Part shown: one piece after another, positions 8,121-47,548 of the stretch
How the letters are laid out: every line of letters starts with the position of its first letter
How positions within the stretch are numbered: the first letter of the stretch is position 1
Program-made: the position numbers and the translations under genes
Notes under the pieces: generated by a model
The model's database searches: none
Told to the model about the DNA's origin: nothing
The model's input: the letters and a program-made list of their open reading frames with translations, nothing else
Assembly: GCA_011033025.1 (NCBI GenBank)
Contig: WFMF01000035.1
Span: forward strand, 787,826-851,825
Direction of reading: 5' to 3'
DNA length: 64,000 nt
Source: Beroe forskalii
Lineage: Eukaryota; Ctenophora; Nuda; Beroida; Beroidae

Positions 8121-8285
8121 TTAACTTATTATTAACCAACCTGTTCTGCAATCAGTAGGTAGTTTGACAGAATCCCCCGTGCTAGCATGACAGGAGGCAG
8201 TGTATCGCCAAGCAACAACACAAGGGTCACGTGGGCTACACACTGCTCTCAGACAGAGCTTGTAGAAAACCTCAACAGCAACCAT
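8121..8285 (-). CDS. Exon: C8 module 8, second part; probable last exon
   Basis: Phase 0 in. VEVFYKLCLRAVCSPRDPC, then ASCHASTG and PTDC. Read through, it ends with TAA at 8121 after a short tail (RTGWLIIS). A weak donor at 8141 (G|GTTGGT) is possible, but no further exon was found to the left. Confidence 0.65.
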   Translation of the reverse strand: MVAVEVFYKLCLRAVCSPRDPCVVAWRYTASCHASTGDSVKLPTDCRTGWLIIS

Positions 8286-11200
8286 CTGTGAGAAAAAAGG
8301 ATGGGGTTAGTGAGGGGGTAGATAAAACAACCACCTGTGAGAAAAGTGGGAGTTAGAAGAACTCAAAGAGGGAATCAGTGAATGTGTTACGAATAAGCCA
8401 TCAGAACTTCAGAATAGAGAAGCTGGAGGGTACTTTTATCCGATTTTATCAGAATCAAAAGAACTGGCAGATCTTAGAAACCTTGTTGCAAGGCTGTTTG
8501 TCAGGCGTGTAGTAGTAAGAACAGACATCCACAGCTTTCTTCTTCCAATAGATGTCATCATTGCAGTAGTTAACCTGGAAAAAGGACCATAAGAATGTTT
8601 CATCATTTTATCGTCCGTTGATTTTTGTACACTTAGCTTTCAACTTTCAAGAAAAATTTCAAGGAAAATCGGCGGAGATTTCGGTAATTGTTCAATTTGT
8701 TCACCTCATGAGGGTGGGTTGCAGTTGGTTCAGGACGCTTCGTTGTTGATATATCACCAACCCTTGTCATTCGGGAGGTATCATCAGAGGATGAAATGGT
8801 TGGATCGACAATTCTAGAGTTATCAGTGGTATGTACAGTAAAGTCTTCTGTCCCATCGGTCTTGATGAAAGATTCAAAGTAGGAGTTTCAGAATCTGTAT
8901 GAAGAGTTCCAGTGAAAAAACCATCAGTCGTTTCAACACTCTTTGTTGTAACGCCAGAAGTAGTGACATCATGAAGGGTTTCAGTAGTGAGATCTCCACT
9001 CCTACACTCCAGTGGAATAAGACTAGGGATCACTGGCCCCAGCCACAGCACATTGATCAAGGAAGTCTGAGAAGAGAGGGCAGTAGCAGGAGGGGAGGAA
9101 GAGGGTCTGTGCAGGAACAGGTGTACAGGAAGAATACTTTTCAGGGTCCACTCTCTGAAACAGAGGGTGTAATTTTGAAAGTGAAAGTAAATTACTGGTT
9201 ATGGTTAGACATGGTTAGATAAGTAGATATATGAGACGATCGCATTAATTCAGAAAAAAGCTGTTTCGAGGTTCTTACATAATCACAATAAAAATTTGTT
9301 ACAGAGATGAAAGCAAAACCTGTCTGCACTTTCCAAATGCTTCATTCGATTCAAAGTATTCTGGGAACACAGTTTGAGCTTTAGCAAATGTCAGCAGGAC
9401 ACAAGTTGGAATGTCAGTGGTTGCTGTAGCTTCTACTGTAAGAAAAGTCTCAGTTCCTTGATCTGAAATGTTCGGGATATACAAGATTATGTCGGTAATA
9501 TTTCCTAGAATAGAAGTCAATGTAAATCTTTATGCTCACAAATTGAAGACCATAAAATATGATTTCAATTCACTTTTCACGTGACATACCCGTTGATAGA
9601 AAAGCAGTCTGTGAAACAGATCCATTGGTCTTCTCAATGACACTATTCTCTCTCGTAGTAGAAACTTCCTCTTTCATTGAAGTGAAGGAGTCATTAGCAT
9701 GCGACTTGGTAGTAATTTCCTCCTCCTTATTCCTGGTCGCAGGAGCTGTTGTACCAAAGTCTACAACAGGAGAAGTGTTCTTCCCAACCACTGTGGTAGT
9801 TGAGTCAGGTTGGGTGCTGAAATCTGTTGAACCAGTTTCAGAGGAAGAGTAACCAAAGGAAGTGTGAGTTGAGAAGTAGGTGGGTGTCGTATACCAAGAG
9901 GTTGCTGGAGCTGAAGTCGATGAATCAGGGGTATCAGAGGCTGTGGATACGATCACTTCCTGGATTGAAGAGGTGGGTGTTTCGAATAGGATTGTAGGGG
10001 TGTATGCTGTAGTTGATTCAGAGTCACAAACATCCCCTATTTCAATGTCTTGGTATCCGACTGAGGCACATGATTCCTTGAAACTCGTGGCTTCGTTACA
10101 TTTGTTCTTGTCAGAGAAGTCCTGACACAGCCGTCCAGTACATTGGACATAGATCTTGCCTTCACCGAGTTTCTGAAATGACAAGTCAATGAGTAAAAAG
10201 CATAATAAATACAAGGAATGAGATTTTAATATAATTGCTCAAAATTCTAGATAGTTGTAAAAATATTTAAGGTGATTTGAAAACAGACCTGGCTGCACCT
10301 GACATTTTGTAAGCTATACTCAAACATGAGTCTTCTACAAAATCCCTCGACTTCACCACGAAGCTCCTGGTTAGTTTGGCATTCAGTTTCATCCCTATTC
10401 ACAGGGAAAGATGTAACAGGGTTCGATTGGTCTTGAAGAGTCGATGATGAAACGATATTACCACATTCAGCAAATGAAAAACCAGAGTTGATACCATTTT
10501 TCTGGCATTCCCTTTTATATGCTCGAACAGCTTGGCATTTATTGCCCGGATTTTGACACATCATGAAATAGCATTGATCGAAAACAACTATCTGATTGAT
10601 GACCTGAGAAAATAGATCTGAATGAGTCAGTGATGAAAATTAACTTGATTGATAAGAAGAAATATTGAACATTTAGGAATTGAAATTTGTTATCAGTTCA
10701 GGGTGCTTAATGTGACTTAATTCTAACTTACCTTTGTACAAAGAGGGTTTGATTTTTCTCCTGTCGTGAGTTCTTGGCAGAAATCCAAAACAGTCTTCGT
10801 ATACAGTTCATTATCAATACAATAGTTTGGAGCAGCAGATGAAGTGATCTCATAAGGGTCAGTAACGTTGCTCTCCACAGATTGAATATTAGTATCACTC
10901 TTTGGACTGGTTGAAGGTGGTGCTGGCGAACGGGTGCTGGTAGTTTGACCCTGGGAAACAATTTCAACGGATTTAGGAGACTTTGAGGGTTCCTCAGTTG
11001 GTACAGCTTCACTTGTGCTGTTTTGAATAGGCTTTGTTGTAGTCTTGATCTTATCACGATCACTTTCACTGGTTTCTAGTTTTAAGAAAGAGGTGACATA
11101 ATCTGAAGTCGAGCTGGATTCTTCTGTTCCCGCTGAAGTTATCCCAGAAGAATCGTTATAGGTATCTGAGTAAGTAGTCGTCCATGTGGGAGTGGTTGCA

Positions 11201-14200
11201 TCTTTCACCGATGTTGTAAGGTCAGATTGTCCATCTTCAGTAGTAATCCCATCTGTGTATGACGAAGTTTCGTAGCCGCCTGAATAAGTGGTAGTCCAAG
11301 GAGGAGTCGTTTTATCATCTACTGTTGTTGTCAATTTAGATCTCCCACTTTCGGTTGACACTCCATCTTTCCCTTTAGTTGAAACATCCTCCACGGAATT
11401 AGATTCAGTGGAAGATGCGAAATCGTAGGGAGATGAAGAAGCAGCGATTGTTGTCGTTGGTTTGTAGGTCGTTGAAGTTGAAATTTGTTTCGAAACTGTT
11501 GAAAGTCCTTCAAATGAACTGCTTTTCGACTCTTCTTTGTCAGAAACAGTTGACAGTATTTGAGTTCTAGTCAGGACCATCTCCTTCAGTAGTCAAGGCA
11601 TCTGTGGAGTCAGAATTAAGTTTTAAATTAGACGTGGTAGGCTGCCAGACCCAAGTTGAAGTTTCATCATCTTGAGTTGTACTCAAATCCTTCTGTGGAG
11701 TTGTGAGCTTATCAGGAACGGTTCCTTCCGAGGTTGTACCAATTCTATAGGAATTAGTAATCGATACCGTCTCAGCAATATTTTCCGACGATACTGGGAG
11801 GTCCTTTGTTGAGGAAGACACAGGTTTTACTGAGGGCATGGGCGTTTGGGTTTGTTGCCCAGGTGAAGTTGGTATCTTATAGGCCCAAGAAGATGTTGTG
11901 ATTCCCTCTGTCGGATTAACAGTTTTAGAATCTGGAGTTGTAAGTGGTTCTTCAGTAGCCAATTTAGTGGTTTCACTTTGTCCACGTGTTGAAGTTGACA
12001 TTAACTTTGAGCTTTTCTCCCAAAGCCATGTGGAAGAAGATCTATCATCCGGGTATGGTCGTGTATTTCCAGAGACCGAGAGTTTCTCTTCTGTTGAAGT
12101 CTTAGCTTCAGTTGTTGGATCCACGTCTGCCCTAGTCGTTGTAGCTTCTCCATCAGAAGTTTTGTCCCACAACCAAGCTGAAGTAGCAAACTCACTCGAA
12201 GAAACGGTTTGATAACGTGAAGTTGTAAGGTACGGATCTTCTGAGGATGTTGAATATTCGAAGGTGTTGGTAACGCTTGCAGAGTGAACTGCACTGGATG
12301 TAGTGGGTATTGGTCTTGTGGATGTAGATCCATTTTCGGATGTAGATCCATCTTCAGTATCTCGATTCTCACTGTGGATAGAAGTGGATGAAGTGAGTAT
12401 CGGTCGGGTTGATGTACGGTCAACTTCTCGATTATCATCTATTGAAGATGTTGTTGTATCCGAGGGAGAAATATTTTCGCGTTGGATCGATGTTGATTCA
12501 GTATCATCAGTGGTAACCATTTCATCCGTTGTTGAGAAAATTTCAATTTTGGGAGATGAAGATGAAGGATCATTTCGAATAGCTGTCGATATCATATCAG
12601 TTGGAAGAACATCAACAGATCCCTTTGTTGATGTGGATATATCGTAGGACCATGAAGATGTGGTGGGACCTCTTGTTTCCACGTCTTGCGAAGAGGTTGA
12701 AATATGTTTTGAGGATTTGGAACCCTGCCAAATCCAGGTGGAGGTAACCATTTCACTGGATGAAACAGAAGTCCAGGATGTGGATTCAGCATCGCTATCC
12801 CGTGGTGTTGTAGATACTTCCGGAGAGTATCTGTGGGAGGAAGATATTTCGTCTTTCTTTGGTGGGAGTGATGATGTCTCTGGATGAAGTTTCAACTGAA
12901 TCCACCCTGGAACTTGTGTATTCATCCACAGATTTAGAAGATGTTTCCATGCCTCTTCTCTCGCTGAAACTAGTGGAAGAGATGCCGTTCCTGAACTCAG
13001 AGGAAGTCAGTATCACTCCTCGAGTAGCAGTAGATTCTGAGGGCTCCTCAGTGAGGAAATCACTGCATAGAATCGGGTCAAGGATAATCACAGCACCCAC
13101 AGATTCACAGAAGGATTGCACTCCTTTCTGGTGTTTGCAAGGGTCTGGTGACTCGCAGATTTTCAAACAGGCAGTGTGTAACTCGTTATACTCATCCATC
13201 AGTAAATTCTCAACGGCTTTCTGAAACGAAAGTACGGATTAAAGATAATTCTAGAGGATCAAAATTTCTGATATGAACCAAATAGCAATTCAATCGTTTG
13301 AAATTTTACAATATCCAACTTTGTATCAAGAATTAATTTGAACAAGACCACTCACATTGAAGCAGTCCTCTAGCTCTAGACCAAGGTAGAAGTACTGCAA
13401 GCAATATCCCTCCCTCTCAAGAGCATTCTCACATAGTTCCTCTTCAGGTTCATTGTAAATGCCAGTTTGGGATTCCTTTGCTTCAAAACAGTCCTTACTG
13501 AAAATTAGGATTCGTTAAGATTAGTTTACATTAACTGCTTTTTGATAAAATATAGTTTCCAGACCCAGATAAATTTAGAACATTTCCAGTTTAGTCATTG
13601 ACAGTCTGATACACATAGACATTAGACAGCCTATTGCGTTGAGACTTGTGTTTGGCTGTCTATTCTCATGCCTCATGGTTAAACGCCGTTCCACTCAACA
13701 GACCCCCGGATGACAACAGATCATTGGGGCCAGTCTTTTGGAGCAGCATTACCTCATATTGCTTTGATATAGATCACAGCCACGGTGGCGCAATGACATT
13801 CGATCAGACCCTATTTTCTAATGTTCCAATTTAAGGGTCGGCAGTCCGCTTACTGCTAATAACAATCAACCACTCTATTAATAGAAGTGACTCATCTGTT
13901 GTCCTTCACCATGCTCATCCCTATCATGACATCATATGGGATGAATCCACCACGCTGATAATGATATATGACGTACTTAGTATTGACTTAATCGGGCGTA
14001 CGGGAGTACCTTGTAGGATTGCCCAGTACTGCCGTTACACTACATAATATATTCCTTATATTAAACATTATCCACATCACTGAGTCGTAATTGAATTGCA
14101 TATATATAATTTAACGTATTGATTATGATGTAAACCAATCGCCAGGAAGAAGTTGTGTGTTATCATGTTGTGTTGACGCAGTAATAGGGCGCGGGGGAAC

Positions 14201-20200: not shown

Positions 20201-23200
20201 AAGCATGTATTCAAATTTCATGTGATAGAAAAAAGTTTTGCAAAAACACGCCTAAAACATCAATGTACAGCTGGTTTTTATGAGATGCTCAATAGATTCT
20301 CCGAGTTTTATATTTATGAAATTCAATGTTTTATTTACTATTTAAGCATTTGCATTTATCAAATTTCCTTGTTTTTTATTATTCTATTCCAATTTCTAAT
20401 ACGAACCTGAAATCCTTGAAAAGTACTGGGTCCACTTGGCAGGAATCGTTGGGGTTGCAGGCACACAGGTCCTCGTAGCATCTCTCCCGGTAGAAATCCC
20501 TCAGAGAAACCATCTGCAGGAAATGTTTCATTTAAATTGGGAATTGTCTGAACCCCTCTGAAGGGCCAAATTGGAAATCTGCAGGATATTTGATTGAAAA
20601 TATCCGATTCTGAATTCAAAATTGGAATTTCCCAATGCCTATCTTATGGCTAAAATGTATGTAGGCCGCGAAATTTGCAGGCGTTTATATATGTGTTAAC
20701 TACCGTCCCTTCCGGAAAATTATCAACTATGCAAAATATGTGTACATGGAGAAATATTCCACTGACCATTTTCCCGGAATTTTGACACATTATGCAGAAC
20801 ACAGCCGTGAATCAGCATAATATATTCAAGTTGACTCGTCGAGGTACTTAACATAATATATGCGTCAAAATGAATCCAGCTGTATTAAGAGTCAAATATT
20901 TAAAAACAGTGTAATGCTGTGCCACTTGGAGATGTCCTCCAAGCACCACCAGCATCCCTCTTAACAAGCCGTGGAGCAGGGAGTTTTGAGCTGGTAAGTA
21001 TTCAGCGAACAGAGCTCAAATAGATTAAGACAAGAAATTACAATTTTCATCATCAACCGACCTTTTTACAGATCTCAGCGCCTTCTTGAACGTCCGCCAT
21101 CGCTCCGTTACATGTCTTCATGGCTTGAGCAGCATGAGTCCTGTTAGTATCACAATAGGATAGGGGCACTTCTGTAGCACTTTCAGTGGTCAGGAACTCA
21201 GTGTTTCGTCCACCTTGCCTGGTGGTTGGTGAAGTTGTTTGGCGGTCTTCTCTAGATCTGTCGGTAGGTTGGGAGGTGGTCTCCAGACCAAGTTCTCTGT
21301 TGGAGTCAGTGGTCCCTCCTTTTTATCTTCCGTCGTGAGAGCGTCGTCTCTTCTCAAGGATGTGGTACTGAACTCCACTCTCTTCCCAGATGGAGTTGAG
21401 GTAGAAGATGTAAGAAGATCACCACGAGTTTCAATGGCATCAGTTGGTCCAGGCGATGAAGTTGTGCCGATATTGATACCGTTTGAAGATGTTGATCTGT
21501 CATCAGGCCTTGAACGATCATCAAATGGAGTTGATGTCACGAGACCCCTGCCATCTCTTGTCGAGTCTTCTTCCTCACTCGAAGTAACTACGAACATTTC
21601 AAAGTTTGAAGTTGAAGAATCTTGAGCCCCCACACTGGATGTTGTTGGGAATCTTTCTGTTGTTGCCGTAGACGTTCCGAGATTAATCACGTACGACGAG
21701 GATGTCGGATTTTCATCTCTATCTGTTGGCTTTACTGAATCTGAGACTCGATCTTCTCCATCTTCGGATACAAAATTCCACCCAGGAGCTTGTGATATCT
21801 ACTATACTTGTACTCCTTTCATCAACCGGTTCTACAGAAAAGAAAGAGCCACTTGAAGTGTTGGTTGTTGATTCCTCCAACCTCCTGTATGTCCGTTGTT
21901 CGCTCATCAGTAGGTGCCTCAGTATCGAAAGGTTCTTCAGTCCTATCATCCGAAGTTGTCAGGATGTATCTATTATGAGTTATCGTCTCCTTGCTTCTAT
22001 CACCAATTGATGTTGTCACGCTGGCTCTGTCTGCAGGAGTTATGTTAACAGAAGATGTAGTCCGGTCGTTTTCTATCGTTCTAACTCCATCATCGATCGA
22101 GGTCGTAGAGATTTCTTCTATCTTTGAACTGGTTTCAAATTCTCTTCTTGAATCCGTGACCACTCCATTTTGGAGAGGTTGTTGAGATCTTTCTATCACG
22201 CGTTTTACTATCTTCGGATGAAGTTATGGAATCCCTTCGCTCCGTTGATGTCAAACGATCTCTGTTAGGAGTGACAGTGGTTGGAGATGAACGGTCTAAG
22301 TTTGGAGTGACAGTTGTTGGAGTAGAGCGGTCCAAGTTTGGTGTCACTGTGGTGGGAGAAGATGCCATCTGTTCTCTGGATGGAGTAGCTGTAGTTTTGT
22401 CCTTGTCTTCAACTGAAATATTGCTGAGATGAAAGACAACCATTCTAGAAATTGAATTGAGTTTCATAGCTATAAAAGCACTCGACGGAATATCGCACAG
22501 CATGAATCAAAAGAATTAACAGGGAAGATTACTGATCACCCTTTCAAACCCTCATCTACTCACAAGGCTCAATGAACTCCTCAACTCCACATATTCCAGG
22601 AGGGAAGTTATCCAGAGTAACCTCTCCGTCCTTCACACACAGAGTCGCATAGAGGGTGATGGAGGGACAGGATCCCATTACATTCCCCCACAGGTTACAG
22701 TAGTCTGTGATGCAGGAGGAGAAGAAGGCGTTGGGGTCGATTGCCTGAAGTTAGAGATAAGTTTATCTACTTTCTAACTTTTAAAGGACAGTTCACCTGA
22801 TCAAAATAAGGCCTCTTCTCTTGCCAGCCTTTAGGCCATGTAAAACACACTATGACACCACTTCATTTTGACAAAACTTCACTTTGACACCACTTCACGT
22901 TGACACCACTTAACTCAACATACCTGGAAGCATGAAGCATACGGGCTGGAGTCACTAGCCAGGTAGTCACAGGCCTTGCTCGCCTCAATGATCTTCACAC
23001 CATTACACAGATAAGGTCCAGAGTATGGGAAAACCTGCAGAGGAAGAGTATACTTCATAGAATCTGGCTTATAACAGCAATTCAAGACATTCTCACAATT
23101 GGTAAAATCAATAGTCGAGAATTCCAGTTTAGAGGCCCAAAATTAGGGCATTTGTTGGTCTTTTGATAACTTCAGACGTTCTAGCGAACACCCAAATTTG

Positions 23201-29200: not shown

Positions 29201-32200
29201 CTTCGATAACAGTAACATGTTTATTTTGATATCATGATGATCTATATCTTATTTTATGTTTCATGCCAATTGTCAAATTGATAAACCAAACATTCTCTGC
29301 AGTAAATGTTTATTGTTTGGTAGATTTATAAACTAATTCAAGAATAATAGAATGACCATCTCATGTTCAGATAGAGCCTTTAAACCATGCTCCACTCATA
29401 AAACAGCCATTTCCAGTGGAGTTACATGGTTCTTTGGTTTGCGAGATGGCCTCCATCTCACTCATCGCTGTGCAAATGCCGAAAATGGGCCTCATGGACA
29501 GCCAAAATGACCATATTGGGGATTATCTCGGAACAGGGTTGGGATAGAGCCTTAAAACATGCTCTACCCTCATAAACCGATCATTTTTACATGGTTCTTC
29601 TTTCCATCTCATAAAAACTGTCCAAATGCCCAAAATGGGCCTCATGGACAGCCAAAATGGCCAAATTGGGGATTATCTCAGGAGCGGTTTGAGATAGAGC
29701 CTTGAAACCATGCTCTACCCTCATAAACTGACCATTTCCAGTCGAGTTACATGGTTCTGATGTTCTCCATCTCATAAGCTGCCCATATGCCAAAATTGGG
29801 CCTGACGGACAGCCGAAATGGCCAAATTTGGGATTATCTCGGGACTGGGTTGAGATAGAGCCTTGAAACCATGCTCTACCCTCATAAACTGATCATTTCC
29901 AGTCGAGTTATATGGTTCTGATGTTCTCCATCTCATAAGCTACCCATATGCCCAAATTGGGCCTGACGGACAGCCAAAATGACCAAATTTGGGATTATCT
30001 CGGGAACGGGACGAGATAGAACCTTAAAACCATGTTCTACCCTAGTAAAACCGCTAATTCTACGTCAGTTAGAGTGGTCATTTATAACTTTTCCTCAAAT
30101 AGAAGCTGAGATATCGTTGATTCATTTTTTGGTCACTGCCCAAAATGGGCGTGGCCCAAAAATGGGTTTCCGCATCGAAAATTTTTGAAACTTTTTTTTG
30201 GTATATATTTGACCTATATGCTATCGGATCCAACGCTCAAACCTAGATTAAGATTTATTTCACACCCATGTTCAGATATATCAAATACAGCCCTTACTAC
30301 AAGTGAAGAGCTGTATTTATTTCAGCGCATAACATATGCCGCGAAATTAAATTAGAACGAAGCATACGCTTACACCTTCAAAACATACATGTATAAATAT
30401 ACGCGATAAATTGAATTTCGGGTGGATAAAAATGCCCCATTTCCCTTGATTTCATACACACGGTCAAAGTACTGCAAAATAAGCGCGGTTAATTGAATTT
30501 GACGAAGGACTGTATTAAGAAGTAATTAATTTATTATACAGACTAGCAGGCCCGATGGGCCTGCAATTACATTGCTCACTCGGCTCAGACTTGAGACTAA
30601 GCGCAAAATCAAATTCATAATTTTACGCCGCGCATTTTGTCTTGTAAGTTCGTAACTATATCTGAAATAACTTTGCGACGCGCGCAGAGTTTCTGCGTTG
30701 CGCGCAAGATTAAAATGCGCGCGCATGTCGCGTTTTGTTAGTTCAACAATTTTGTTTTCCCTTACGTTTACGTGAAGTGTTCTGAATCGAACTTCGTGAA
30801 CTTCTCATTAATTTTGAAACACGCCGAGACGTACGGACATCGTTCAGTGCGAATTTATTTCATCGGTTGAACTCTAACGCTTAGAGATTTTTTGTAATAA
30901 CTTCCTACTTTCCTAAACTTCCAATAACTGTCGTCCTAAATATTCCTACATGGCTCATGAAATTTAAAGTTTAAAAGCATCAACATTTAAAAGCAACATA
31001 TTGGCATCTTAAATCACTAACGTAATAGTAACACTACATTGCGAACTACTTTATGCTGCACGTGCGCAAATATCCAATCTCCATAGCAACGGCACCTCTT
31101 TTCTCCCGTTTGCATTCATTTCTCTTGATATTTTCTTGGCAAGCTCAAATTTAATTGTATACGGCGGCACAGACAGAGTACAGACATAATTCACGTGCTC
31201 TTACGAAATTATAATTAAGATGTTATAAGAGCAGCGATGCGGTAAATTAAAGTAATATTCGCAAGTTAAAGTAACATTAATTGTTCCCTGAAGACGTAGC
31301 AATTTAGATTTTTATCAACATGAACCATGACCGAACGATACTGACTGATCACTTCAGTTCACTTCAGAGTAAAGGTTATATTCGGCATGAAAACCCTTGA
31401 AATTTTTCAAAACACTATGTGCCTCCTACCTATCACTCTGATGTAGGTATGCGCCACGTCGTAACCATGTTTATTCCACGCTACACACTGATACCAGGCA
31501 CTGCTGAAAACCTGCGAGGATAGATGGAATGACAAACAGTGGATTGTAAAGATGAGAACGAGATATTTTACAGAATTGTAGCTGTTAATCATGCAAAAAA
31601 TTGACATTTGATTGGTTACTGTAAATCTTAGCAGTGAGTCCGAGCAGCAAGTGTGTCAAATTTTGGTTTATAGAAATTGTACTTCTCGACACAGGCCTAG
31701 ATTACAAGAAATGAGTGGAAAGGCCTAGAGTTTATCAGTTCAGGTGCAAGCTCAGATGGACGATCGGTCACCTGTATTCTCGTAGTGGTCCTGATAGCGC
31801 ACACGCCGTTGTTATTGCCCCTTTCAGCCGCAACCAACCCCTCCTTGTCAACATCTACACTCATCACTGACACGCTGGGTTGCGGGCGACCTGGAAAGGG
31901 GGATACAAAGTGCTGTGGGTACAGTACTTGATATTTCATAATTGATTTGACATTAGATCACGAAAAATCATCTTTCTGTGACATTTTGTCGATGCCAAGT
32001 TAATGACAGTATTCTGCTTACCCTTTGCATTGCAGGCGAGTGAAACTGACTGGCCATGCTCAACTTCCAAGAACTCAGGCGGTTGTAGGGTGATTACTGG
32101 GTAACCAATAACTGAAGAATGGATTAGTGCTTATATTTTGAAAAAAAGGGCGTTTAATGATCTCCTTTGATCATATTCGAATCGCTGAATCTTGTATAAG

Positions 32201-41200: not shown

Positions 41201-44200
41201 CGTAACCATCCGAGGAAGAAGCTGTAGGAACCTGTAAGAAACTACTTTTAGTACATACAAAACAAATCATACCTGGTGGGTAACTTACAGCAGTCAGATG
41301 TTAGAGGCAGGTCTATCCCGATGTCTTGACATGCTAGCATCATGGCGTGGTAGGAAGAACAGTGACACCACGACTGAAAATCGGGTTTTAGGTTCTACTG
41401 AAGGACTTCAGAATTGTGTTGAAGTTGAGATGCATGGGCAAAAAATAATCAAAAATATAAACGTATAATGAGCTACAACTGATTTTTTTCTTTCTTTCTT
41501 TCAATTGAAATATGAAAAAAGGACCAAATAGAACGATATCAATCCCCCGGCACTAACCTCCTTGCACTGACACATTGACTTGACACAGGAGTCATAGAGT
41601 GGCTGTCCATCAAAGTAGGCTAAACAATCACCGAACCTGCCGTCTATATCAGTCAGTACGCGGCACACCTCATCTGCACGTGCAACTTCCTGCGGAGAGA
41701 TGAAGAGTGTCAAGTCCAGATAGCTATGTATATTATCTTATTCTACACTTTATAACGCGAACTTTAGTAAAGGGCAGTATACAATAGCTCAGTTTGTGAT
41801 CTGTATTTTGAGGTACTCATACGGTTTATAAGCGGAAGTAATGATCCAGAATTATTATTAACTAGCCCGGTCTATTCGCTCACTGGACTTAGGATTGGTA
41901 TTCCCGGTGACACTCTGTATTTCTTTAGACTTAGTACACAAGTACAGTCATGTTCAAGGTGACACTCTGTCATTGAGCTGACATCAGAAGTCATCACAAT
42001 GATATGTTAATCAGGGTCATGTGAGCATATTGATGACTATAGTAGATTCCATCTGGTGATTTCACCCAGCTACTCCAACTTACGGACAACGCTAATATGG
42101 GGTAGGTCGGGTCGAGGTGTAACGAGTATTTAGGAACTTAAGCGATTTCAAATCGCCCAATAGTCGTATATACTTGGATGCCCACTTGGATCCTATCACG
42201 TTGTACTTTTAGTGAAGTTTCAGAGATGATTTCAACTTACGTTCCAGGGCAGAATAACTAAACTGGGATAGAACAAGGTTGAACGACACGTCATCGGTCA
42301 TTATGACTATCCAGCGGAGTGTTTAACTGATGACCGTCAATCGAATATTTTCTATAAATCTGAGAAGTTGACGAGGGATGAATTTAAAATTTTACAGGCT
42401 GAAATCTATACGGGCTGATAGCGTATAATTGTGGTGTTCCGAATACTTTATTGGTAAGGTGGCTCTATGTAAAGATAGAATTTTTCCCGAAAATCCCCAA
42501 ATTTCGCGCATAGTAAGGTACTCCATGGTTTACCGCAGAACATTGGATTCGATATACACAATTATTATCGATTATAATAAATCCAACGTGTAATTTTACC
42601 CATGTCTTCAGACGGCAGAATCTGGGTGGAACTCTTGAATAAATAATATGACGTATGCTAATAAATAATAAATAATAAATCATAAATTTAGGGTTGTCTA
42701 GTGTCTACATGACTTTATTTTATTGATCCTACTCGAATGAAGATCAGGGTGAAGCTAGAGGCGACGTCATTATCATGATGAAGAGTGGTAAATTTATAAT
42801 ATTGAACTTTATAGAGCTCTAGCATTACACTGCACGTTTCTAGATACACTGATAAGCTATTTGAACTTGCCTACAGTTCTAGTGAATCACACATTAAAGT
42901 GCTGAAGTGATCTAGCCCAGCAATTGCATTTGCCTGCTTAAAAGTTAACGTTTCTCGGAAGTCGGATATATACGATTGATTTTATATAGCTTCTTTCCAC
43001 GTTTCAGACTAGAGGTTTAAACGATCCAGTCTAAAACTTACAAAAACTTTTAGTTGATAAAACATTGTACAGAAATAGAGAAAACGTATCATAAGTCCTC
43101 GTCTAGGTCTTCTCACCATCTTGAAAGGTTTTATGACACTTCTCCCACAATCTACATGCATGAAAAGGAAGATATCAGATTCAACCTAATTTTGCGACAG
43201 ACAAGAGTGATCCATTCTTTCCTCACCTTCTCATTTTCACACTTCTCATCCTCCTCCTCATTAGGATTGCTGGTATCACAGGGGAGCGTAGTGGTGGAGA
43301 GGAGGTTTTCAGTAGATACTTCAGCTCTGAAATGAAAAAATCATTCGATATCATGCTTCAACCCTGAAGGTATTGAAGATTTTTGGTACAAGTAATAACT
43401 AATAAGTGTTTAAGTGGAGCGTCGAACTATGCCAAGGGATGAGAACGCTGAGAATGGATTTGGGGGTGAATTTAGAAAAAAAGAGGATAAATTCATGTTT
43501 AGCCGCAATTGCGCTAGAGGAAGGACCTTTTACATTTCATTGGCTCTAGGTGGAACATGATTGCATTTCTTAATTGAGTTCGTTAACATGGACCTGTCCA
43601 CACTACATTAGACTTGTTTAAAAGATGAAAAACAGGTAGGTTTATTATTGACTTTTGAGTTGTCTAAAATACTGTTCATAACACGATTTCATTGACAGCG
43701 TTATCAAATTATTATTCAGCTATGAGGCAAGTCATAAGATCACTTCCCAGATTCTTTTTAAAAGTAGTGGGAGTCAAAAATGATCTGGAATCTGGATGAA
43801 TTAATGAAAATTTGTTTGGTGAATCTTAACCAGTACGGTCAGTATCTGAACTGTAAGGGAGTCAGAAGTGGGCTAATGGCATAATGAATACAACTCAGAG
43901 CATTTTTTGCGGTTTTTCTGAATGTTCCACTGAGTCAACTAGTCTCGATATATTTGAGTAATTGAACTATGACCTCAGAAGCAAAAGCAGAAGCTCAGCA
44001 TATAATACATGACCTACTCCATGCAATAAAAAACTACGTAATGTTATGCGTTTATGCTTCAGCGTTGTATGGTCTATGGGCTACCATACCATAGTAAATA
44101 GTAGGATGAATTATTCCATATTTGGGGGTGCAATTATTCCATATTTGGGGCTGCATTTATCCCTTATATGGTGTTGTAATTATGGAGATTATCAAATGCT

Positions 44201-47200: not shown

Positions 47201-47548
47201 GGCATTCCTATCACCATCTCAGTAGTGGTTGCATGGTCAATACTGAGGTAAATTGTCGCTGGGTAAAGTAGCTCACTCGTGCCATCAGTATTATCCGACC
47301 ATGTGAATATCAATAAATCAATTTTTTATTAATTCCACATTTTATCCCAACCAAGACATTGTTTTCCTGCCTCAACATATGAACTGTATTTAATCATCTT
47401 CTCAAACAGTCTACCTGTGTATGCCGGGATTTGCAGCACAGGTTCCACAGGTGTTGTATCCATTTCTCACTGATATCCTTAGCTTGTTGGCTAGATCCCA
47501 CGACACTTCAATACCTGCTTCCTTCCACTCAAACACCACGTTTCCTCC
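8121..47548 (-). CDS. Giant modular extracellular protein: VWD, C8, TSP1, Ig, mucin-like linkers (gene span, partial)
   Basis: About 30 minus-strand exons across 39 kb. Almost all junctions agree in phase from 47548 down to 8121, so one transcription unit is the simplest reading. Coding order: VWD C-terminal half and C8 (47548-41289); TSP1 (33714-33274); three Ig domains (32111-25601); TSP1 (25440-25138); VWD and C8 (24972-22564); Ser/Thr-rich linker; six more C8-like modules with linkers. The architecture recalls SCO-spondin, gel-forming mucins and VWF-like proteins, which are secreted and disulfide-linked; the exact combination with Ig domains is not one I recognise. A signal-peptide exon at 35382 suggests the unit might instead be two genes, or have an internal promoter. 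Unresolved points: the middle of the second Ig domain, the junction 24913/24340, and several frame changes in Ser/Thr-rich exons. The 5' end is beyond the window or lost in the satellite region. Confidence 0.65.
8482..8574 (-). CDS. Exon: C8 module 8, first part
   Basis: Phase 0/0, 31 codons. NYCNDDIYWKKKAVDVC then KQPCNK has the same layout as the NYC/SYC openings of modules 3 and 5. Confidence 0.8.
8705..9106 (-). CDS. Exon: C8 module 7 second part and linker, with a one-base frameshift
   Basis: Acceptor CTGCACAG at 9107 gives TLFLPSCYCPLFSDFLDQC, then AVAGASDP followed at once by a stop. Removing one base (position 9025) would restore the C8 ending SLIPLEC and the Thr-rich tail; a second frame change near 8885 leads to TATHPHE and the donor at 8705 (phase 0). 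The total length is a multiple of three, so the two changes cancel. Confidence 0.65.
9320..9504 (-). CDS. Exon: start of C8 module 7
   Basis: Phase 1 in, 0 out. It ends PTCVLLTFAKAQ, then ESNEAFGKCRQ, the first half of a C8 module, with the intron again immediately after the cysteine dipeptide. Confidence 0.75.
9590..10172 (-). CDS. Exon: C8 module 6 second part and Ser/Thr-rich linker
   Basis: Phase 0 in, 1 out. IYVQCTGRLCQDFSDKNKC, then FKESCASVGYQ and IGDVC, followed by about 130 Ser/Thr-rich residues in one uninterrupted frame. Confidence 0.8.
10289..10603 (-). CDS. Exon: C8 module 5 second part, linker, start of module 6
   Basis: Phase 0/0, 105 codons, no frame break. FDQCYFMMCQNPGNKCQAV, then AYKRECQKNG and FSFAEC; after a linker, GFCRRLMFEYSLQNVRCSQ opens the next module. 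Confidence 0.8.
10732..13220 (-). CDS. Exon: C8 module 4, long mucin-like linker, start of module 5
   Basis: Phase 0 in (acceptor CGTTTCAG), phase 0 out (AAG|GTAAGT). Module 4 is NELHTACLKICESPDPC through LDPILC. About 700 Ser/Thr-rich residues follow, with a recurring tryptophan cassette (STWLWEK, SAWLWDK, STWIWQG, STWVWQP) and a repeated TTTYSG/TTTYSD segment. The exon ends NYCIDNELYTKTVLDFC. The frame changes twice, near 12870 and 11575; the length is one base short of a multiple of three. Expected to be a glycosylated spacer between disulfide-rich modules. Confidence 0.7.
13356..13497 (-). CDS. Exon: end of C8 module 3 and start of module 4
   Basis: Phase 2 in, 0 out. It begins KDCFEAKESQ and ends LGLELEDCFN. 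The TTTCAG acceptor and GTGAGT donor are clean. Confidence 0.75.
13498..14350. other. Intron sequence, nothing recognised
   Basis: Part of the 6.9-kb intron between the exons at 13497 and 20407. No splice-flanked open frame seen. A diverged TGATAATGA...TGACGTA word occurs near 13960. Confidence 0.4.
14351..17750. mobile_element. 3.4-kb fold-back element with about 1.4-kb inverted arms
   Basis: The left arm (14351 to about 15780) and right arm (about 16272 to 17750) are near-identical in inverse orientation, starting TACTCCAGTAGCTGAGGCC on both ends. The flanks show TAT on each side, possibly a 3-bp target duplication. The right arm has about 40 extra bases near 17253. The central 0.5 kb holds a third partial copy of an arm segment (about 15915-16005). 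The small ORFs occur in both arms and are not recognisable proteins; no transposase was seen. High arm identity suggests recent insertion or gene conversion. Confidence 0.8.
17969..20035 (+). CDS. Matrix metalloproteinase with EGF, two sushi and hemopexin-like domains
   Basis: 688 residues in a single coding exon. Signal peptide MRLSILISLLLYTAHS; pro-domain with cysteine switch KRCGVPD (Cys95); a long basic run with furin-type RRKR ending at 130; catalytic domain 131-290 with zinc motif HELGHALGLRH (245-255) and Met-turn residue 262. An EGF-like domain follows (CRPNPCKNRGVC to 328), then two sushi/CCP domains (about 340-395 and 400-455), then hemopexin-like repeats (DAVFSYTDPDT, ITAALRWDDDT). 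Known MMPs cleave matrix proteins outside the cell; EGF plus CCP between catalytic and hemopexin parts is unusual. The usual DGPGG calcium loop is replaced (SVFNKLILGHAFFP). TTTTTTTCCAG directly before GATG looks like a 3' splice site, so a 5' non-coding exon is likely. It lies inside an intron of the minus-strand giant gene. Confidence 0.92.
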   Translation: MRLSILISLLLYTAHSQDTSEFTDTGFLSAFGYLNTGNQARVNSDSSEEEDVESLVLITEEDKANAVREFQKYYGLEETGVVDEATLEAMHSKRCGVPDKDGPEESIDELQVTKKKKKRRRKSKKSRRKRYITSSSKWRDTHLSYRFLNYTSDIPQSLTRAAFREAFDLWEEHSGLEFFEETRSAISADIEIAYMSGTHRDRSVFNKLILGHAFFPTVGWLHMNDQQNWNYNSYRGIDTVFVAVHELGHALGLRHSKKGTIMHASYPGYSPSIKLAQDDIDGIQALYGPNACRPNPCKNRGVCSKSHDEDAQFPFTCTCSVGWKGHKCHLPVNRADTTKCRHVNIANGVARPAGRTSPGETVKIYCNDGFELVGAAALKCSHTSTYNPPQSNTICRRKILCPELSINNGQVYPKRGVEAESTVSFSCDDGYQISGATRVKCKTDGTYDRTTPRCTKIEEKVEDFCPDSFDDLSGRSVRDSMMYGFKGSRFWIYRAASDGGVTSHWSHSGEMSHEFPNIPTDPDAVFSYTDPDTRNRFMCFVKWPQIYYWDIIKREIRRIDNFLDSFQLPANEQITAALRWDDDTIFFFVPKGYYVYHTDKKRVYPSFKLPMSNVSGMPSSVTVTAAARSFDDETVSLFTDRGVYEVRKRDTRVMRNSPRPVVMRGTEGWMLARVTGVLEDGKEIWTVS
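20036..20406. other. 3' flank of the metalloproteinase gene
   Basis: AT-rich; holds the 3' UTR of the metalloproteinase. No canonical AATAAA was noticed on the plus strand; AATAAG at 20105 is the nearest variant. Confidence 0.4.
20407..20513 (-). CDS. Exon: C8 module 3, second part
   Basis: Phase 0 in, 2 out. LRDFYRERCYEDLCACNPND is a strong C8 match. The remainder of the module (CQVDPVLFKDF, then SKDC) is completed by the exon at 13497, across a 6.9-kb intron that holds the metalloproteinase gene and a fold-back element. Confidence 0.8.
21062..22412 (-). CDS. Exon: mucin-like Ser/Thr-rich linker plus start of C8 module 3, with frame changes
   Basis: Acceptor TATTTCAG at 22413 (phase 1), donor AAG|GTCGGT at 21062 (phase 0). 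It starts with three 12-residue tandem repeats (PTTVTPNLDRS), continues Ser/Thr/Asp/Arg-rich, and ends with LSYCDTNRTHAAQAMKTC, the opening of a C8 module. The Ser/Thr-rich reading moves between frames near 22180, 21890, 21770 and 21195, so the exon is not open end to end. Assembly indels, hidden short introns or real lesions are all possible. Likely heavily O-glycosylated if expressed. Confidence 0.6.
22564..22744 (-). CDS. Exon: C8 module 2, second part
   Basis: Phase 0 in, 1 out at GTGAGT. AIDPNAFFSSCITDYCN, then CPSITLYATLCVKDGE and FPPGIC: a textbook second half of C8. Confidence 0.85.
22852..22915. repeat. TGACACCACTT tandem words (inverse of TGGTGTCA)
   Basis: Four copies of TTGACACCACTT-like words within an intron. 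They are the reverse complement of the motif at 2711-2880. Confidence 0.5.
22924..23034 (-). CDS. Exon: C8 module 2, first part
   Basis: Phase 0/0. SKACDYLASDSSPYASCFQ is the first half of a C8 domain, directly after the VWD. The splice after the CFQ triplet is at the same position as in modules 3-8. Confidence 0.85.
23222..23332 (-). CDS. Exon: end of VWD2 domain
   Basis: Phase 0/0, 37 codons. It begins NDWCGVLLQDEIPKSK, in the position of the VWD CGLCGN motif, although only one cysteine remains. Confidence 0.75.
23629..23732 (-). CDS. Exon: VWD2 domain, late strands
   Basis: The strong acceptor TTTCTTTCCAG at 23733 gives phase 1. RQLQLTLRYDRETGLLVMSL then PRNML fits the strand preceding the CG-x-C motif of VWD. 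Phase 0 out. Confidence 0.75.
23887..23981 (-). CDS. Exon: VWD2 domain, middle strands
   Basis: Phase 2 in, 1 out. STVAVKYRSDVILLDKEGVV matches the central VWD strands. Confidence 0.7.
24191..24340 (-). CDS. Exon: VWD2 domain, early strands
   Basis: Two frames are open. The phase-2 frame, ending VPLHVHAHG, joins the next exon and gives the alternating beta pattern expected of VWD (FTATSEVKLLTPC). The phase-1 frame (VTVGYWSGRHYYTVGVV) fits only the upstream exon. I prefer phase 2. Confidence 0.6.
24913..24972 (-). CDS. Exon: Thr/Pro linker
   Basis: Phase 1 in with acceptor CCCATTAG. It encodes TLAPTSPEQRVTVTPTGEM. The natural donor (G|GTATGT) leaves phase 1, while the next exon is best read in phase 2. 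Either a VWD N-terminal exon between 24345 and 24905 was missed or another donor is used. Confidence 0.45.
25138..25230 (-). CDS. Exon: second TSP1 repeat, second part
   Basis: QRVRRRQCKLRDCKKT, then KPCNPGKCSE, completes the repeat. A consensus donor A|GTAAGT at 25138 gives phase 1 and fits the next exon. Read without splicing, the frame would stop at 25121, so an alternative terminal exon is possible. Confidence 0.8.
25369..25440 (-). CDS. Exon: second TSP1 repeat, first part
   Basis: Phase 1/1. A basic stretch (ARKKDRKR) precedes DEWSEWSACDVVCGPG, the canonical start of a TSP1 repeat. Confidence 0.85.
25601..25785 (-). CDS. Exon: Ig domain 3, second half
   Basis: Phase 2 in, 1 out. ISIDQEGWYRHQATDSRGVV is the E-F-G region, with His where the F-strand cysteine should be. 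Together with the previous exon it is a cysteine-less Ig domain. Confidence 0.75.
25977..26103 (-). CDS. Exon: Ig domain 3, first half
   Basis: Phase 1 in, 2 out. VKEKDNLTLYATAFGAPAPW has the Ig strand B to C pattern, but the B-strand cysteine is replaced by Tyr/Ala. Confidence 0.75.
26277..26355 (-). CDS. Exon: Ig domain 2, strands F-G (5' limit uncertain)
   Basis: HCKTYTSNEYGAVSGEVTVR followed by VKG is the end of an Ig domain; donor AAAG|GTACTG, phase 1. The acceptor could be TTTATAG near 26346 or one further upstream. Between this and the previous exon about 20-25 residues of the Ig fold are missing, so an intermediate exon is probably unrecognised. Confidence 0.5.
26745..26850 (-). CDS. 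Exon: Ig domain 2, first half
   Basis: MTLVIDFRISGFPAPRVV is a typical Ig strand B to C stretch, with Asp in place of the B-strand cysteine. The donor is GTAAGA (phase 2). The acceptor (CACTAAG) is poor in pyrimidines but gives phase 1, which fits the previous exon. A longer open frame here (26439-26960) reads through in another frame and is probably a shadow. Confidence 0.55.
27072..30272. mobile_element. 3.2-kb inverted-repeat element built of about 145-bp tandem units
   Basis: The ends are inverse copies: AACATGGGTGTG near 27072 and CACACCCATG at 30261. Each arm (27072 to about 28100; about 29350 to 30272) holds a unique 250-bp end and then four to six tandem units of about 145 bp marked by GATAATCCCCAATTTGGCCA, GGCTGTCC and CATCAGAACCATGTAACTCG. 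The 1.2-kb centre has other small inverted sequences. No transposase frame. It lies in the intron region between Ig domains 1 and 2. Confidence 0.75.
28395..28515. repeat. Dispersed repeat shared with 33895-34010
   Basis: GCCTGATCGGGTCCATATTG ... CATCCCTC ... ATCCCAAAATGGACCCGATA corresponds to GCCTGATCGGGCCCCTATTG ... ATCCCAAAATGGACACGATA at 33898. Both copies lie in introns of the giant gene. Confidence 0.6.
30543..30564 (-). mobile_element. Helitron-like 3' terminus
   Basis: On the minus strand an 8-bp-stem hairpin (GCAGGCCC ATC GGGCCTGC) runs directly into CTAG, then T. Hairpin plus CTRR followed by T is the Helitron 3' end signature, and the sequence is nearly the same as the end at 55352-55373. 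The 5' end was not located. Confidence 0.55.
31430..31511 (-). CDS. Exon: Ig domain 1, strands F-G
   Basis: Phase 0 in, 1 out. SSAWYQCVAWNKHGYDVAHT carries the Y-x-C motif of strand F and strand G. With the two preceding exons it makes one complete Ig domain. Confidence 0.85.
31772..31890 (-). CDS. Exon: Ig domain 1, middle
   Basis: Phase 1 in, 0 out. It begins GRPQPSVSVMSVDV, the usual G-x-P-x-P loop after strand B, and continues to TTTRIQ. The Trp of strand C is not evident. Confidence 0.75.
32022..32111 (-). CDS. Exon: Ig domain 1, strands A-B
   Basis: Phase 1/1. PPEFLEVEHGQSVSLACNAKG is the start of an I-set Ig domain with the B-strand cysteine present. Confidence 0.85.
33274..33332 (-). 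CDS. Exon: thrombospondin type 1 repeat, end
   Basis: Phase 2 in, 1 out. GEVKERKACFCPDNP completes the TSP1 repeat begun in the previous exon. Splice sites are TTTCAG and GTGAGT. Confidence 0.8.
33591..33714 (-). CDS. Exon: thrombospondin type 1 repeat, first part
   Basis: Phase 1 in, 2 out. It encodes FTAWSDWGPCDC, then YRFRSCSQPTPRLGGSAC, with the W-x-x-W core and the R-x-R strand of TSP1 repeats. It continues in the next exon. Confidence 0.85.
33735..33860. repeat. Purine-rich minisatellite (GGAGGG/TTAGAGTGGG)
   Basis: Repeats of AGAGTGGG, GGAGGGAG and TTAGAGTGGGTGAGAG over about 120 bp, almost pure G/A on the plus strand, directly upstream (minus sense) of the acceptor of the TSP1 exon at 33714. 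Its complement is a long pyrimidine tract. Confidence 0.6.
34637..34644. repeat. TGACGTCA element copy
   Basis: TGACGTCATTATCATGGTTT, then AGAATGG: the inverse of the copies at 4773 and 6047. Confidence 0.55.
35094..35240. repeat. 18-bp tandem repeat AACTGGTGTCAGAGAATT
   Basis: About seven copies, 18-bp period, immediately 3' (minus sense) of the candidate signal-peptide exon. It shares the TGGTGTCA word with 2711-2880 and 22852-22915. Confidence 0.75.
35325..35382 (-). CDS. Exon: candidate signal-peptide first exon
   Basis: ATG at 35382 starts MSLISPLLSTLVWILVTHS, a good signal peptide, ending at the consensus donor G|GTAAGT in phase 1. That phase fits the TSP1 exon at 33714, which begins PVDGGFTAWSDW. 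It therefore looks like the first exon of a secreted TSP1/Ig/VWD protein, or an alternative promoter within a longer gene. Confidence 0.55.
36771..36778. repeat. TGACGTCA element copy with AATAGGCGG end
   Basis: AATAGGCGGTTATGAGATGA leads into CGTCATTACC; same arrangement as at 3524. Confidence 0.5.
38335..38342. repeat. TGACGTCA element copy
   Basis: AAATAGGCG at 38288 and AAATCATGATAATGACGTCA at the core. Confidence 0.5.
40228..40235. repeat. TGACGTCA element copy
   Basis: CTGATAATGACGTCATTATC is a near-perfect palindrome here, flanked on the right by CCACCTAATTTT. Confidence 0.55.
41289..41373 (-). CDS. Exon: C8 domain, second part
   Basis: Phase 0 in, 1 out at a consensus donor (T|GTAAGT). 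It encodes SWCHCSSYHAMMLACQDIG and ends LTSDC, the close of a C8 domain. If the donor is not used, the frame stops about 40 nt later, so this could be the last exon of a separate gene. If it is used, the phase fits the TSP1 exon at 33714. Confidence 0.75.
41558..41689 (-). CDS. Exon: C8 domain, first part
   Basis: Phase 0/0, 44 codons. The cysteine pattern VCRVLTDIDGRFGDC followed by PLYDSCVKSMCQC is the classic first half of a C8 domain (disulfide-rich module that follows VWD domains). Unlike the other modules there is no intron between the two halves of this motif. Confidence 0.8.
41690..43226. other. Intron sequence
   Basis: Between the exons at 41689 and 43227. Holds a variant TGACGTCA element (CGACGTCATTATCATGATGA near 42762); nothing else recognised. 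Confidence 0.45.
43227..43326 (-). CDS. Exon: VWD-to-C8 linker
   Basis: Phase 2 in, 0 out, with clean CATTTCAG and GTGAGG sites. It encodes an acidic linker with two cysteines (EEEDEKCENEK). The roughly 4.1-kb intron upstream of it contains the innexin gene on the opposite strand. Confidence 0.65.
44111..44172. promoter_or_regulatory. Three CArG boxes in a 23-bp tandem repeat
   Basis: CCATATTTGG at 44116-44125 and 44139-44148, and CCTTATATGG at 44162-44171, fit the SRF consensus CC(A/T)6GG and are spaced exactly 23 bp apart as parts of a tandem repeat (TTATTCCATATTTGGGG). They lie about 0.94 kb upstream of the innexin start codon. A role in innexin expression is inferred. Confidence 0.55.
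45108..46718 (+). CDS. Innexin gap-junction protein, two coding exons
   Basis: Exons 45108-45302 and 45489-46718, joined in phase 0 (CAG|GTGAGA ... CCCAG|GGT), 474 residues. First transmembrane segment about 33-55 (LLMVIFFIISTISMLVG), then extracellular loop 1 with Cys in QPVSC, EEYC, PCVGF and FICNN. The innexin signature appears as WYQWVPFY, leading into segment 2 (about 128-147). Segment 3 is around 204-230; loop 2 holds FPKMTSCRF and LCALTLNVLNQYVF; segment 4 follows. The C-terminal tail is cytoplasmic, basic then acidic, with DTMGDTMGDTGE. Innexins form gap junctions or hemichannels in the plasma membrane. GIYT and VPYPGIAP in loop 1 recall ctenophore innexins. A TTTCAG before the start suggests a 5' non-coding exon. 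Nested, on the opposite strand, in an intron of the giant gene. Confidence 0.93.
47312..47317 (+). terminator. Possible polyadenylation signal of the innexin gene
   Basis: AATAAA about 594 nt after the innexin stop codon, followed by a T-rich stretch. Confidence 0.3.
47415..47548 (-). CDS. Exon: C-terminal half of a VWD domain (VWD1)
   Basis: Acceptor CTCGCAG, donor GTAGAC; phase 0 in, 2 out. It encodes GGNVVFEWKEAG, then RISVRNGYNTCGTC, matching the late beta-strands and the CG-x-C motif of VWD domains. The N-terminal half is not visible in the satellite region upstream. Phase joins to the exon ending at 43326. Confidence 0.7.

What the first reader, a model, noticed from the sequence alone, without database searches (positions are those of the whole stretch)
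8121..47548. Giant VWD/C8/TSP1/Ig/mucin gene of unusual architecture
About 30 exons chain in phase into a protein with two VWD domains, eight C8-like modules, two TSP1 repeats, three Ig domains and long Ser/Thr-rich linkers. The modules are each known, but I do not recognise this combination, in which C8 modules without a preceding VWD are separated by mucin-like spacers.
Basis: partly seen in the sequence, partly recalled or inferred. Interest (0 to 1): 0.75.

Follow-up and report, generated by a model that had tools for sequence, protein, structure and literature searches.

The report
Comb-jelly mucin with beaded C8 modules
A comb-jelly gene appears to encode a very large secreted protein in which small disulphide-rich C8 modules, normally attached to a partner domain, are strung like beads between sugar-ready spacers, so it looks like an unusual relative of mucus and glue proteins.

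Summary
The observation largely holds. On the minus strand 32 exons (47548 to 8121) give about 2,760 residues: VWD (C-terminal half)-C8-TSP1-Ig-Ig-Ig-TSP1-VWD-C8, then six more C8-like modules separated by Ser/Thr-rich spacers. The 23 junctions whose phase can be checked all match (a few sites were picked with phase in mind). Pfam passes C8 modules 1, 2 and 5, Ig1, Ig3 and TSP1-2. Modules 3, 6, 7 and 8 beat every shuffle in a leave-one-out test; module 4 does not. Modules 2-8 share a phase-0 intron two residues after the third cysteine.

Corrections: the window ends at a contig end, so the 5' part, with half of the first VWD, is missing. Four exons need about eleven one-base frame changes (assembly indels most likely; pseudogene not excluded). 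VWD2 is weak in Pfam but aligns along FCGBP and MUC2.

The modules are known kinds, and Ig-VWD-C8 recurs elsewhere in this genome. What stands out is six C8-like modules without VWD: 29 of 35 C8 matches in this genome have a VWD match upstream. Best reading: a secreted, mucin-like extracellular protein. New variant of a known kind.

The parts
47415..47548 (-). Exon 1 of the visible gene: C-terminal half of VWD1, ends ..NGYNTCGTCAANPG
   Evidence: open frame, TCGCAG acceptor, donor phase 2; with C8-1 co-linear with FCGBP
43227..43326 (-). Exon 2: linker between VWD1 and C8-1
   Evidence: phase 2 to 0, good splice sites
41558..41689 (-). Exon 3: C8-1 first half
   Evidence: Pfam C8 44.1 bits with exon 4
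41289..41373 (-). Exon 4: C8-1 second half; joins TSP1-1 in phase without a TIL domain
   Evidence: phase 0 to 1, donor GTAAGT
33591..33714 (-). Exon 5: TSP1-1, first part
   Evidence: TSP_1 20.9 bits with exon 6, cut-off 21.6
33274..33332 (-). Exon 6: TSP1-1, second part
   Evidence: phase 2 to 1
32022..32111 (-). Exon 7: Ig1a
   Evidence: Ig_3 37.6 bits over exons 7-9
31772..31890 (-). Exon 8: Ig1b
31430..31511 (-). Exon 9: Ig1c
26745..26850 (-). Exon 10: Ig2 N-terminal strands (..GMTLVIDFRISGFPAPRVVW)
   Evidence: phase fits but acceptor is poor, score -2.6; tentative
26277..26344 (-). Exon 11: Ig2 C-terminal strands (..TSNEYGAVSGEVTVRVK)
   Evidence: a middle exon is probably missing; no Ig family above cut-off for Ig2
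25977..26103 (-). Exon 12: Ig3a
   Evidence: I-set 27.5 bits with exon 13
25601..25785 (-). Exon 13: Ig3b
25369..25440 (-). Exon 14: TSP1-2a
   Evidence: TSP_1 35.1 bits with exon 15
25138..25230 (-). Exon 15: TSP1-2b
24913..24972 (-). Exon 16: short Thr/Pro linker before VWD2
   Evidence: phase 1 to 1
24191..24340 (-). Exon 17: VWD2 N-terminal part, SGRHYYTV in the place of GDPH; one frame change at a G5 run
   Evidence: hand reading; aligned to FCGBP AWGDPHYTTLDGHRFDF, 7.3 bits
23887..23981 (-). Exon 18: VWD2b
23629..23732 (-). Exon 19: VWD2c
23222..23332 (-). Exon 20: VWD2d, CGVL in the place of CGLC
22924..23034 (-). Exon 21: C8-2 first half
   Evidence: Pfam C8 41.2 bits with exon 22
22564..22744 (-). 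Exon 22: C8-2 second half
21062..22412 (-). Exon 23: spacer A (35% S+T) plus C8-3 first half; four frame changes
20407..20513 (-). Exon 24: C8-3 second half
   Evidence: 0 of 500 shuffles reach C8-3's score
13356..13497 (-). Exon 25: end of C8-3 and first half of C8-4, across a 6.9-kb intron
   Evidence: phase 2 to 0; C8-4 itself not supported by sequence
10732..13220 (-). Exon 26: C8-4 second half, spacer B (40% S+T) and C8-5 first half; two frame changes
   Evidence: C8-5 32.0 bits with exon 27
10289..10603 (-). Exon 27: C8-5 second half, short linker, C8-6 first half; symmetric 0-0 exon
9590..10172 (-). Exon 28: C8-6 second half and spacer C
9320..9504 (-). Exon 29: end of spacer C and C8-7 first half
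8705..9154 (-). Exon 30: C8-7 second half and spacer D; two frame changes by decoder, four by hand reading
   Evidence: Pfam C8 23.5 bits on the hand reading
8482..8574 (-). Exon 31: C8-8 first half
   Evidence: 0 of 500 shuffles for C8-8
8121..8285 (-). Exon 32: C8-8 second half and stop codon
17894..20035 (+). Nested gene on the opposite strand: M10 matrixin metalloprotease with Sushi repeats, stop-to-stop frame of 713 aa
   Evidence: Pfam Peptidase_M10 134 bits, Sushi 60 bits
45075..46718 (+). Nested innexin gene on the opposite strand, between exons 1 and 2 (outer limits are those of two open frames)
   Evidence: Pfam Innexin 116 bits for 45465-46718; Bolinopsis innexin 46%
47749..62983 (.). 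Arrays of an about 352-bp satellite, reaching close to the contig end; they cut the 5' part off

Best explanation
A gene for a very large secreted extracellular glycoprotein of a ctenophore, related to the VWD-C8 branch of mucus proteins (FCGBP, gel-forming mucins). Shown: an N-terminal part with VWD-C8, TSP1, three Ig-like domains, TSP1 and a second VWD-C8, followed by a tail in which C8-like modules alternate with Ser/Thr-rich spacers; no TIL among the Pfam matches of the spliced pieces; a stop codon 8 residues after the last module. Inferred: each C8 module is a small bead closed by its own four disulphides, and the spacers carry O-glycans and stay stiff and hydrated, so the tail is a string of beads that gives gel or glue properties. 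The N-terminal Ig/TSP1/VWD part would bind partners or assemble the chains. VWD2 has lost the GDPH cleavage motif and the second cysteine of CxxC, so it is probably structural only. The tail probably grew by duplication of exons: modules 2-8 share a phase-0 intron, and two exons (26, 27) have the symmetric form second half / linker / first half, so one duplication adds exactly one C8 in frame.
For: Exon chain with matching phases. Pfam hits for C8, Ig and TSP1. Leave-one-out profile test: 6 of modules 2-8 (7 modules) beat all shuffles. Eight cysteines in each of modules 2-8 as I cut them. VWD2-C8-2 matches FCGBP structure 8rde (E 1.3e-31, mostly through C8) and MUC2 6rbf over query residues 10-238 (E 0.008). 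Spacers 35-40% S+T. Exons 23, 25, 26 and 27 each hold parts of two successive units, which ties the tail together as one gene.
Against: No transcript; 5' end and signal peptide not seen; about eleven frame changes; C8-4 not supported by sequence; C8-7 and the N-terminal part of VWD2 were read by hand across frame breaks, so their scores are partly fitted. Pfam does not pass VWD. Two joins cross long introns (C8-1 to TSP1-1, 7.6 kb; Ig1 to Ig2, 4.6 kb) and rest on phase, with sites chosen to fit. Glycosylation, secretion and polymer formation are not tested.
Confidence: 0.6

Rival explanations
1. A tentacle adhesive (colloblast or mucous-gland glue) rather than a mucus or matrix protein: the same molecule, used as a temporary glue.
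For: VWD-C8 proteins with TSP1 and Thr-rich repeats are flatworm glues (PMC8621496 and PMC6745481, passages). vWD is over-represented among Mnemiopsis colloblast candidates (PMC6278862, passages). Spacer B carries five TSTWIW-like aromatic motifs.
Against: No TIL found, whereas those glues have vWD-C8-TIL; the same Mnemiopsis paper reports no BLAST support for homology of colloblast candidates to known glues and no low-complexity enrichment; no expression data here.
Confidence: 0.2
2. A recently broken pseudogene of such a protein.
For: About eleven 1-base frame changes in 4.4 kb of four exons, while the nested metalloprotease frame (2.1 kb) and the long innexin frame (1.25 kb) are intact.
Against: No in-frame stop in about 2,640 codons (the most uncertain stretches of exons 17 and 30 left out); with a substitution:indel ratio of 8, 3.9 stops are expected in the affected exons (P of none 0.02), but at ratio 4 P is 0.14 and at ratio 2 it is 0.38, so not decisive. 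Several breaks lie at short homopolymers (by eye); the checked splice phases are intact.
Confidence: 0.15
3. Two or three neighbouring genes on one strand (VWD-C8-TSP1-Ig; Ig-TSP1-VWD-C8; C8-mucin tail) read as one.
For: Introns of 7.6 and 4.6 kb between domain groups; the same genome has compact Ig-Kazal-Ig-VWD-C8 genes with a signal peptide-like start (by eye).
Against: I saw no stop-ended last exon or new first exon in the frames read there, but 39.9-35.0 and 31.3-27.1 kb were covered only by candidate-exon lists and no signal-peptide search was run; exon 23 joins spacer A to C8-3 and the phases fit.
Confidence: 0.15

Closest known systems
FCGBP (IgG Fc-binding protein)
   Same: VWD-C8 pairs align co-linearly; best PDB match for VWD2-C8-2 (8rde, E 1.3e-31) and a database hit (P0012, named IgGFc-binding protein, E 5e-13)
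   Different: FCGBP is a run of VWD-C8-TIL-E assemblies, 11 of 13 with GDPH (PMC10880436, passages); here no TIL was found, no GDPH in VWD2, plus Ig, TSP1 and mucin-like spacers
Gel-forming mucins (MUC2, MUC5AC) and VWF
   Same: VWD-C8 units, Ser/Thr-rich regions, cysteine-rich build; PDB matches, for VWF mainly through C8
   Different: no TIL and no C-terminal cystine knot among the Pfam matches; spacers broken up by single C8 modules instead of one long PTS block (mucin layout recalled)
SCO-spondin
   Same: VWD, C8 and TSP1 in one large secreted protein; P0005 and P0010; P0010 also has weak VWD-C8 alignments (3 of 26 stretches)
   Different: most aligned stretches are TSP1 repeats (32 of 32 in P0005, 23 of 26 in P0010); P0010 lists TIL and LDLa accessions and no Ig; no mucin-like C8 tail is known to me for it (recalled)
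Hemicentins and TSP1-Ig proteins (P0006; P0007, identifier in the style of Pleurobrachia models, recalled)
   Same: TSP1 followed by Ig; TSP1-1/Ig1 aligns at 30% to P0007
   Different: no VWD or C8 accession in P0007's Pfam list or in the part of P0006's list that was printed
Flatworm adhesive proteins Mlig-ap1/ap2 and Mile-ap1/ap2
   Same: vWD, C8 and TSP1 around repetitive or Thr-rich regions
   Different: carry TIL, lectin, EGF or LDL domains; no Ig or strings of C8 in the passages read
Ig-Kazal-Ig-VWD-C8 genes in the same genome (C460, C485)
   Same: Ig1 region matches them at 36% and 31%; VWD and C8 follow
   Different: compact (about 640-720 aa in the frames seen), with Kazal, one VWD and one C8; flanks were not searched for a mucin tail

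Membership tests
VWD-C8 (D-assembly) superfamily | VWD followed by C8 | tested here: met
   C8-1 and C8-2 above Pfam cut-off; VWD2-C8-2 co-linear with FCGBP/MUC2; VWD alone sub-threshold in Pfam (14.6 bits, cut-off 22.9)
VWD-C8 (D-assembly) superfamily | TIL and E modules after C8 | tested here: not met
   No TIL in Pfam scans of the spliced cysteine-rich pieces (spacers not scanned in spliced form); C8-1 splices to TSP1; E module not tested
VWD-C8 (D-assembly) superfamily | GDPH cleavage motif (many members) | tested here: not met
   VWD2 reads SGRH at that place in the hand-bridged frame; VWD1 N-half not in the window
Gel-forming mucins | PTS regions (about 40% S+T and 5% P; criterion recalled) | tested here: inconclusive
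   294 of 2,663 windows of 100 aa meet it; spacer means 35-40% S+T
Gel-forming mucins | C-terminal cystine knot | tested here: not met
   The stop codon follows C8-8 by 8 residues; Pfam lists only C8 there
Gel-forming mucins | signal peptide and N-terminal D1-D2-D3 | not testable with these tools
   contig ends in satellite
C8 domain (PF08742) | eight-cysteine C8 pattern for each of the 8 modules | tested here: inconclusive
   3 of 8 above cut-off; 7 of 8 supported when the leave-one-out test is added; C8-4 not
SCO-spondin | VWD-C8-TIL repeats with many TSP1 and LDLa | tested here: not met
   no TIL or LDLa in Pfam scans of the spliced cysteine-rich pieces, two TSP1 only; 5' part not in the window

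The most novel reading that the evidence does not exclude
C8 has become an independent structural bead: a ctenophore-specific class of extracellular protein in which C8 modules, freed from VWD, alternate with glycosylated spacers and multiply by duplication of exons that straddle module borders, giving a new kind of mucus or glue polymer.
Probability: 0.35. Interest if true: 0.65.

Novelty: new variant of a known kind. Interest (0 to 1): 0.48.

Why it matters
C8 is usually described as a companion packed against VWD. A string of C8 modules without VWD, in a ctenophore, would show that C8 can fold and act alone, and would add a new design to the early history of mucus and bioadhesive proteins. 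The shared phase-0 intron gives a directly testable model of how such strings grow.

Tried and rejected
Pfam on unspliced frames: C8 and TSP_1 only below cut-off; also one hit to a low-complexity repeat family, PF06131, in the 35-kb repeat. An automatic splice model with 46 exons contained a false exon opposite the innexin and doubtful ones in the 41-34 kb region; replaced by the manual chain. A TIL or extra exons at 41-34 kb: no convincing splice-bounded candidate. Contig C968 as the missing 5' part: its end cuts a canonical GDPHY VWD, but nothing joins it to this gene. Tiny introns (the 49-nt one at 12905-12857) instead of frame changes: the shortest intron of the final chain is 85 nt (9589-9505), and the removed stretches look coding. 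A second copy of 11000-13250 to settle the frame changes: none found in the genome besides itself. Protein database: the two searches with this gene gave 2 and 10 proteins, none seen to have the full architecture; the third was an innexin control with 2 hits, one from Bolinopsis, which shows that some ctenophore proteins are held. could only return proteins of 438-1,393 aa, and one search scored only the 7,990 candidates sharing most words, so an ortholog can have been missed. A first profile trained on modules 1, 2, 5 and 6 gave the same verdict as (modules 3, 7, 8: 0 of 500 shuffles; module 4: 65 of 500). Structure prediction was not tried, because spliced sequences do not count as the window's own.

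Full report
What and where. The window is the last 64 kb of a contig of a 216-Mb genome. An innexin nested in the gene has 2 database hits, one from Bolinopsis microptera at 46% identity and one from an unnamed ENA contig at 78%, so a ctenophore source is likely; the species was not identified. The gene lies on the minus strand.

Exon chain. Reading three-frame translations (one search's output was cut in the middle) and fixing the splice sites gave 32 exons from 47548 to 8121. 28 exons are open without internal stops; the 23 junctions between neighbouring ones of these match in phase. Some sites were chosen with phase in mind (the C8-1 donor, the TSP1-1 and Ig2 acceptors), so this is not a blind test; the Ig2a acceptor is poor (score -2.6). 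The model has 2,762 residues.

Frame breaks. Four exons (4.4 kb) cannot be read in one frame. A frame-shift decoder placed four changes in 22412-21062, two in 13220-10732 and two in 9153-8703; it also placed one at 8138 when run past the stop codon, which I do not count. By hand I read four in exon 30 and one in exon 17, about eleven in all. Several sit at short homopolymers, judged by eye. The nested metalloprotease frame and the long innexin frame are intact, so the breaks are concentrated in this gene. With a substitution:indel ratio of 8 a decaying gene should show about 3.9 stops in the affected exons and none are seen (P 0.02), but at a ratio of 4 P is 0.14 and at 2 it is 0.38. I favour assembly errors and leave a pseudogene open.

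Domains. Pfam on spliced pieces: C8-1 44.1, C8-2 41.2 and C8-5 32.0 bits (cut-off 23.7); C8-7 23.5 (hand-bridged), C8-8 17.9, C8-3 14.3; C8-4 and C8-6 not listed singly (the C8-5/C8-6 piece had two C8 stretches). Ig1 37.6, Ig3 27.5, TSP1-2 35.1; TSP1-1 20.9, just under its cut-off; Ig2 without an Ig family above cut-off. VWD2 14.6, under its cut-off of 22.9, but PDB sequence comparison finds FCGBP (E 1.3e-31, driven mainly by C8) and MUC2 6rbf across residues 10-238 (E 0.008); FCGBP's AWGDPHYTTLDGHRFDF lies opposite YWSGRHYYTVGGSYTDF in a stretch of 7.3 bits. VWD1 C-half plus C8-1 aligns along FCGBP (in one search the best stretch is C8 only, weaker ones include the VWD part).

Are all eight modules C8? 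Modules 2-8, as I cut them, have eight cysteines each (C8-7 on the hand reading), module 1 nine. Leave-one-out profiles built from modules 2-8: the scores of modules 2, 3, 5, 6, 7 and 8 are reached by 0 of 500 full shuffles and 0 of 500 shuffles with cysteines fixed; module 4's by 135 and 274. Modules 2-8 all have a phase-0 intron two residues after the third cysteine (for C8-7, whose first half has only two, after the second); module 1's intron is elsewhere. Module 4 therefore rests on exon structure and cysteine count only. Partial C8 matches elsewhere in this genome suggest that introns at both places also occur in ordinary VWD-C8 genes (C77 for the first kind, C379 for the second), so the intron is probably older than the tail.

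How unusual. In the same genome 29 of 35 C8 matches have a VWD match within 10 kb upstream on the same strand; two of the six without are from this gene (from the lists; only best candidates are scored there and degenerate VWDs are missed, as in this gene). Ig-VWD-C8 is not unique: C460 and C485 hold Ig-Kazal-Ig-VWD-C8 genes (Pfam run on C460 and one of two C485 copies), and C491 has TSP1-like, VWD and C8 matches in order. Database searches found only partial relatives: SCO-spondin and hemicentin mainly for TSP1/Ig, FCGBP for VWD-C8, P0007 for TSP1-Ig.

Spacers. S+T is 35% (A), 40% (B) and 36% (C), proline 5-6%; 294 of 2,663 windows of 100 aa reach 40% S+T and 5% P. Spacer B carries five TSTWIW-like motifs. 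They are mucin-like at the lower edge of the usual definition (recalled).

Function. The stop codon comes 8 residues after C8-8, with no room for a membrane anchor. The layout fits a secreted, O-glycosylated extracellular protein with disulphide beads; this is inference. Glue is a serious rival: vWD-C8 proteins with TSP1 and Thr-rich repeats are flatworm glues (passages), and vWD is over-represented among Mnemiopsis colloblast candidates, though that study reports no BLAST support for homology of these candidates to known glues (passages). VWD2 lacks GDPH, whose Asp and His matter for cleavage in FCGBP (passages).

Nested genes. The M10 metalloprotease (17894-20035, +) lies in the intron between exons 24 and 25 and the innexin in that between exons 1 and 2. 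2,357 nested intronic genes are reported in Hormiphora (PMC8527503, abstract and passages), so this is expected.

Print. Seven paper searches in an open-access library listed, by title and start of abstract, no paper on this architecture; one search asked for it most directly and found 0 papers. Passages of seven papers were read, none as a whole. Subscription papers, including earlier surveys of mucin evolution, were not seen.

Noticed in passing
14351-17750: Long inverted repeat: arms of about 1.4 kb, 98-99% complementary in the two longest stretches, around a 490-bp centre; a foldback mobile element or a hairpin artefact, inside the 6.9-kb intron beside the metalloprotease gene.
   Followed up: no
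47749-62983: Satellite of about 352-bp units with long open frames; 339 matches in the genome, a lower bound; sequence near the contig end looks full of errors.
   Followed up: partly
17894-20035: Matrixin (M10) with peptidoglycan-binding-type prodomain and Sushi repeats in one open frame of 713 aa, nested on the opposite strand.
   Followed up: partly
1000-2705: Minus-strand Ig-like frames with a Ser/Thr-rich stretch (by eye), probably a separate downstream gene.
   Followed up: no
L033 2579-4575, L032 1992-3539: Two near-identical Ig-Kazal-Ig-VWD-C8 genes about 14 kb apart on contig C485; the second copy seems to lack the first Ig in the frames listed.
   Followed up: partly
L013 4750-4914: Contig C968 ends inside a canonical GDPHY VWD exon; could be part of any VWD gene, including the missing 5' part.
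   Followed up: partly
spacer B, 13000-11600: Five TSTWIW-like aromatic motifs spread through the Ser/Thr-rich spacer.
   Followed up: no
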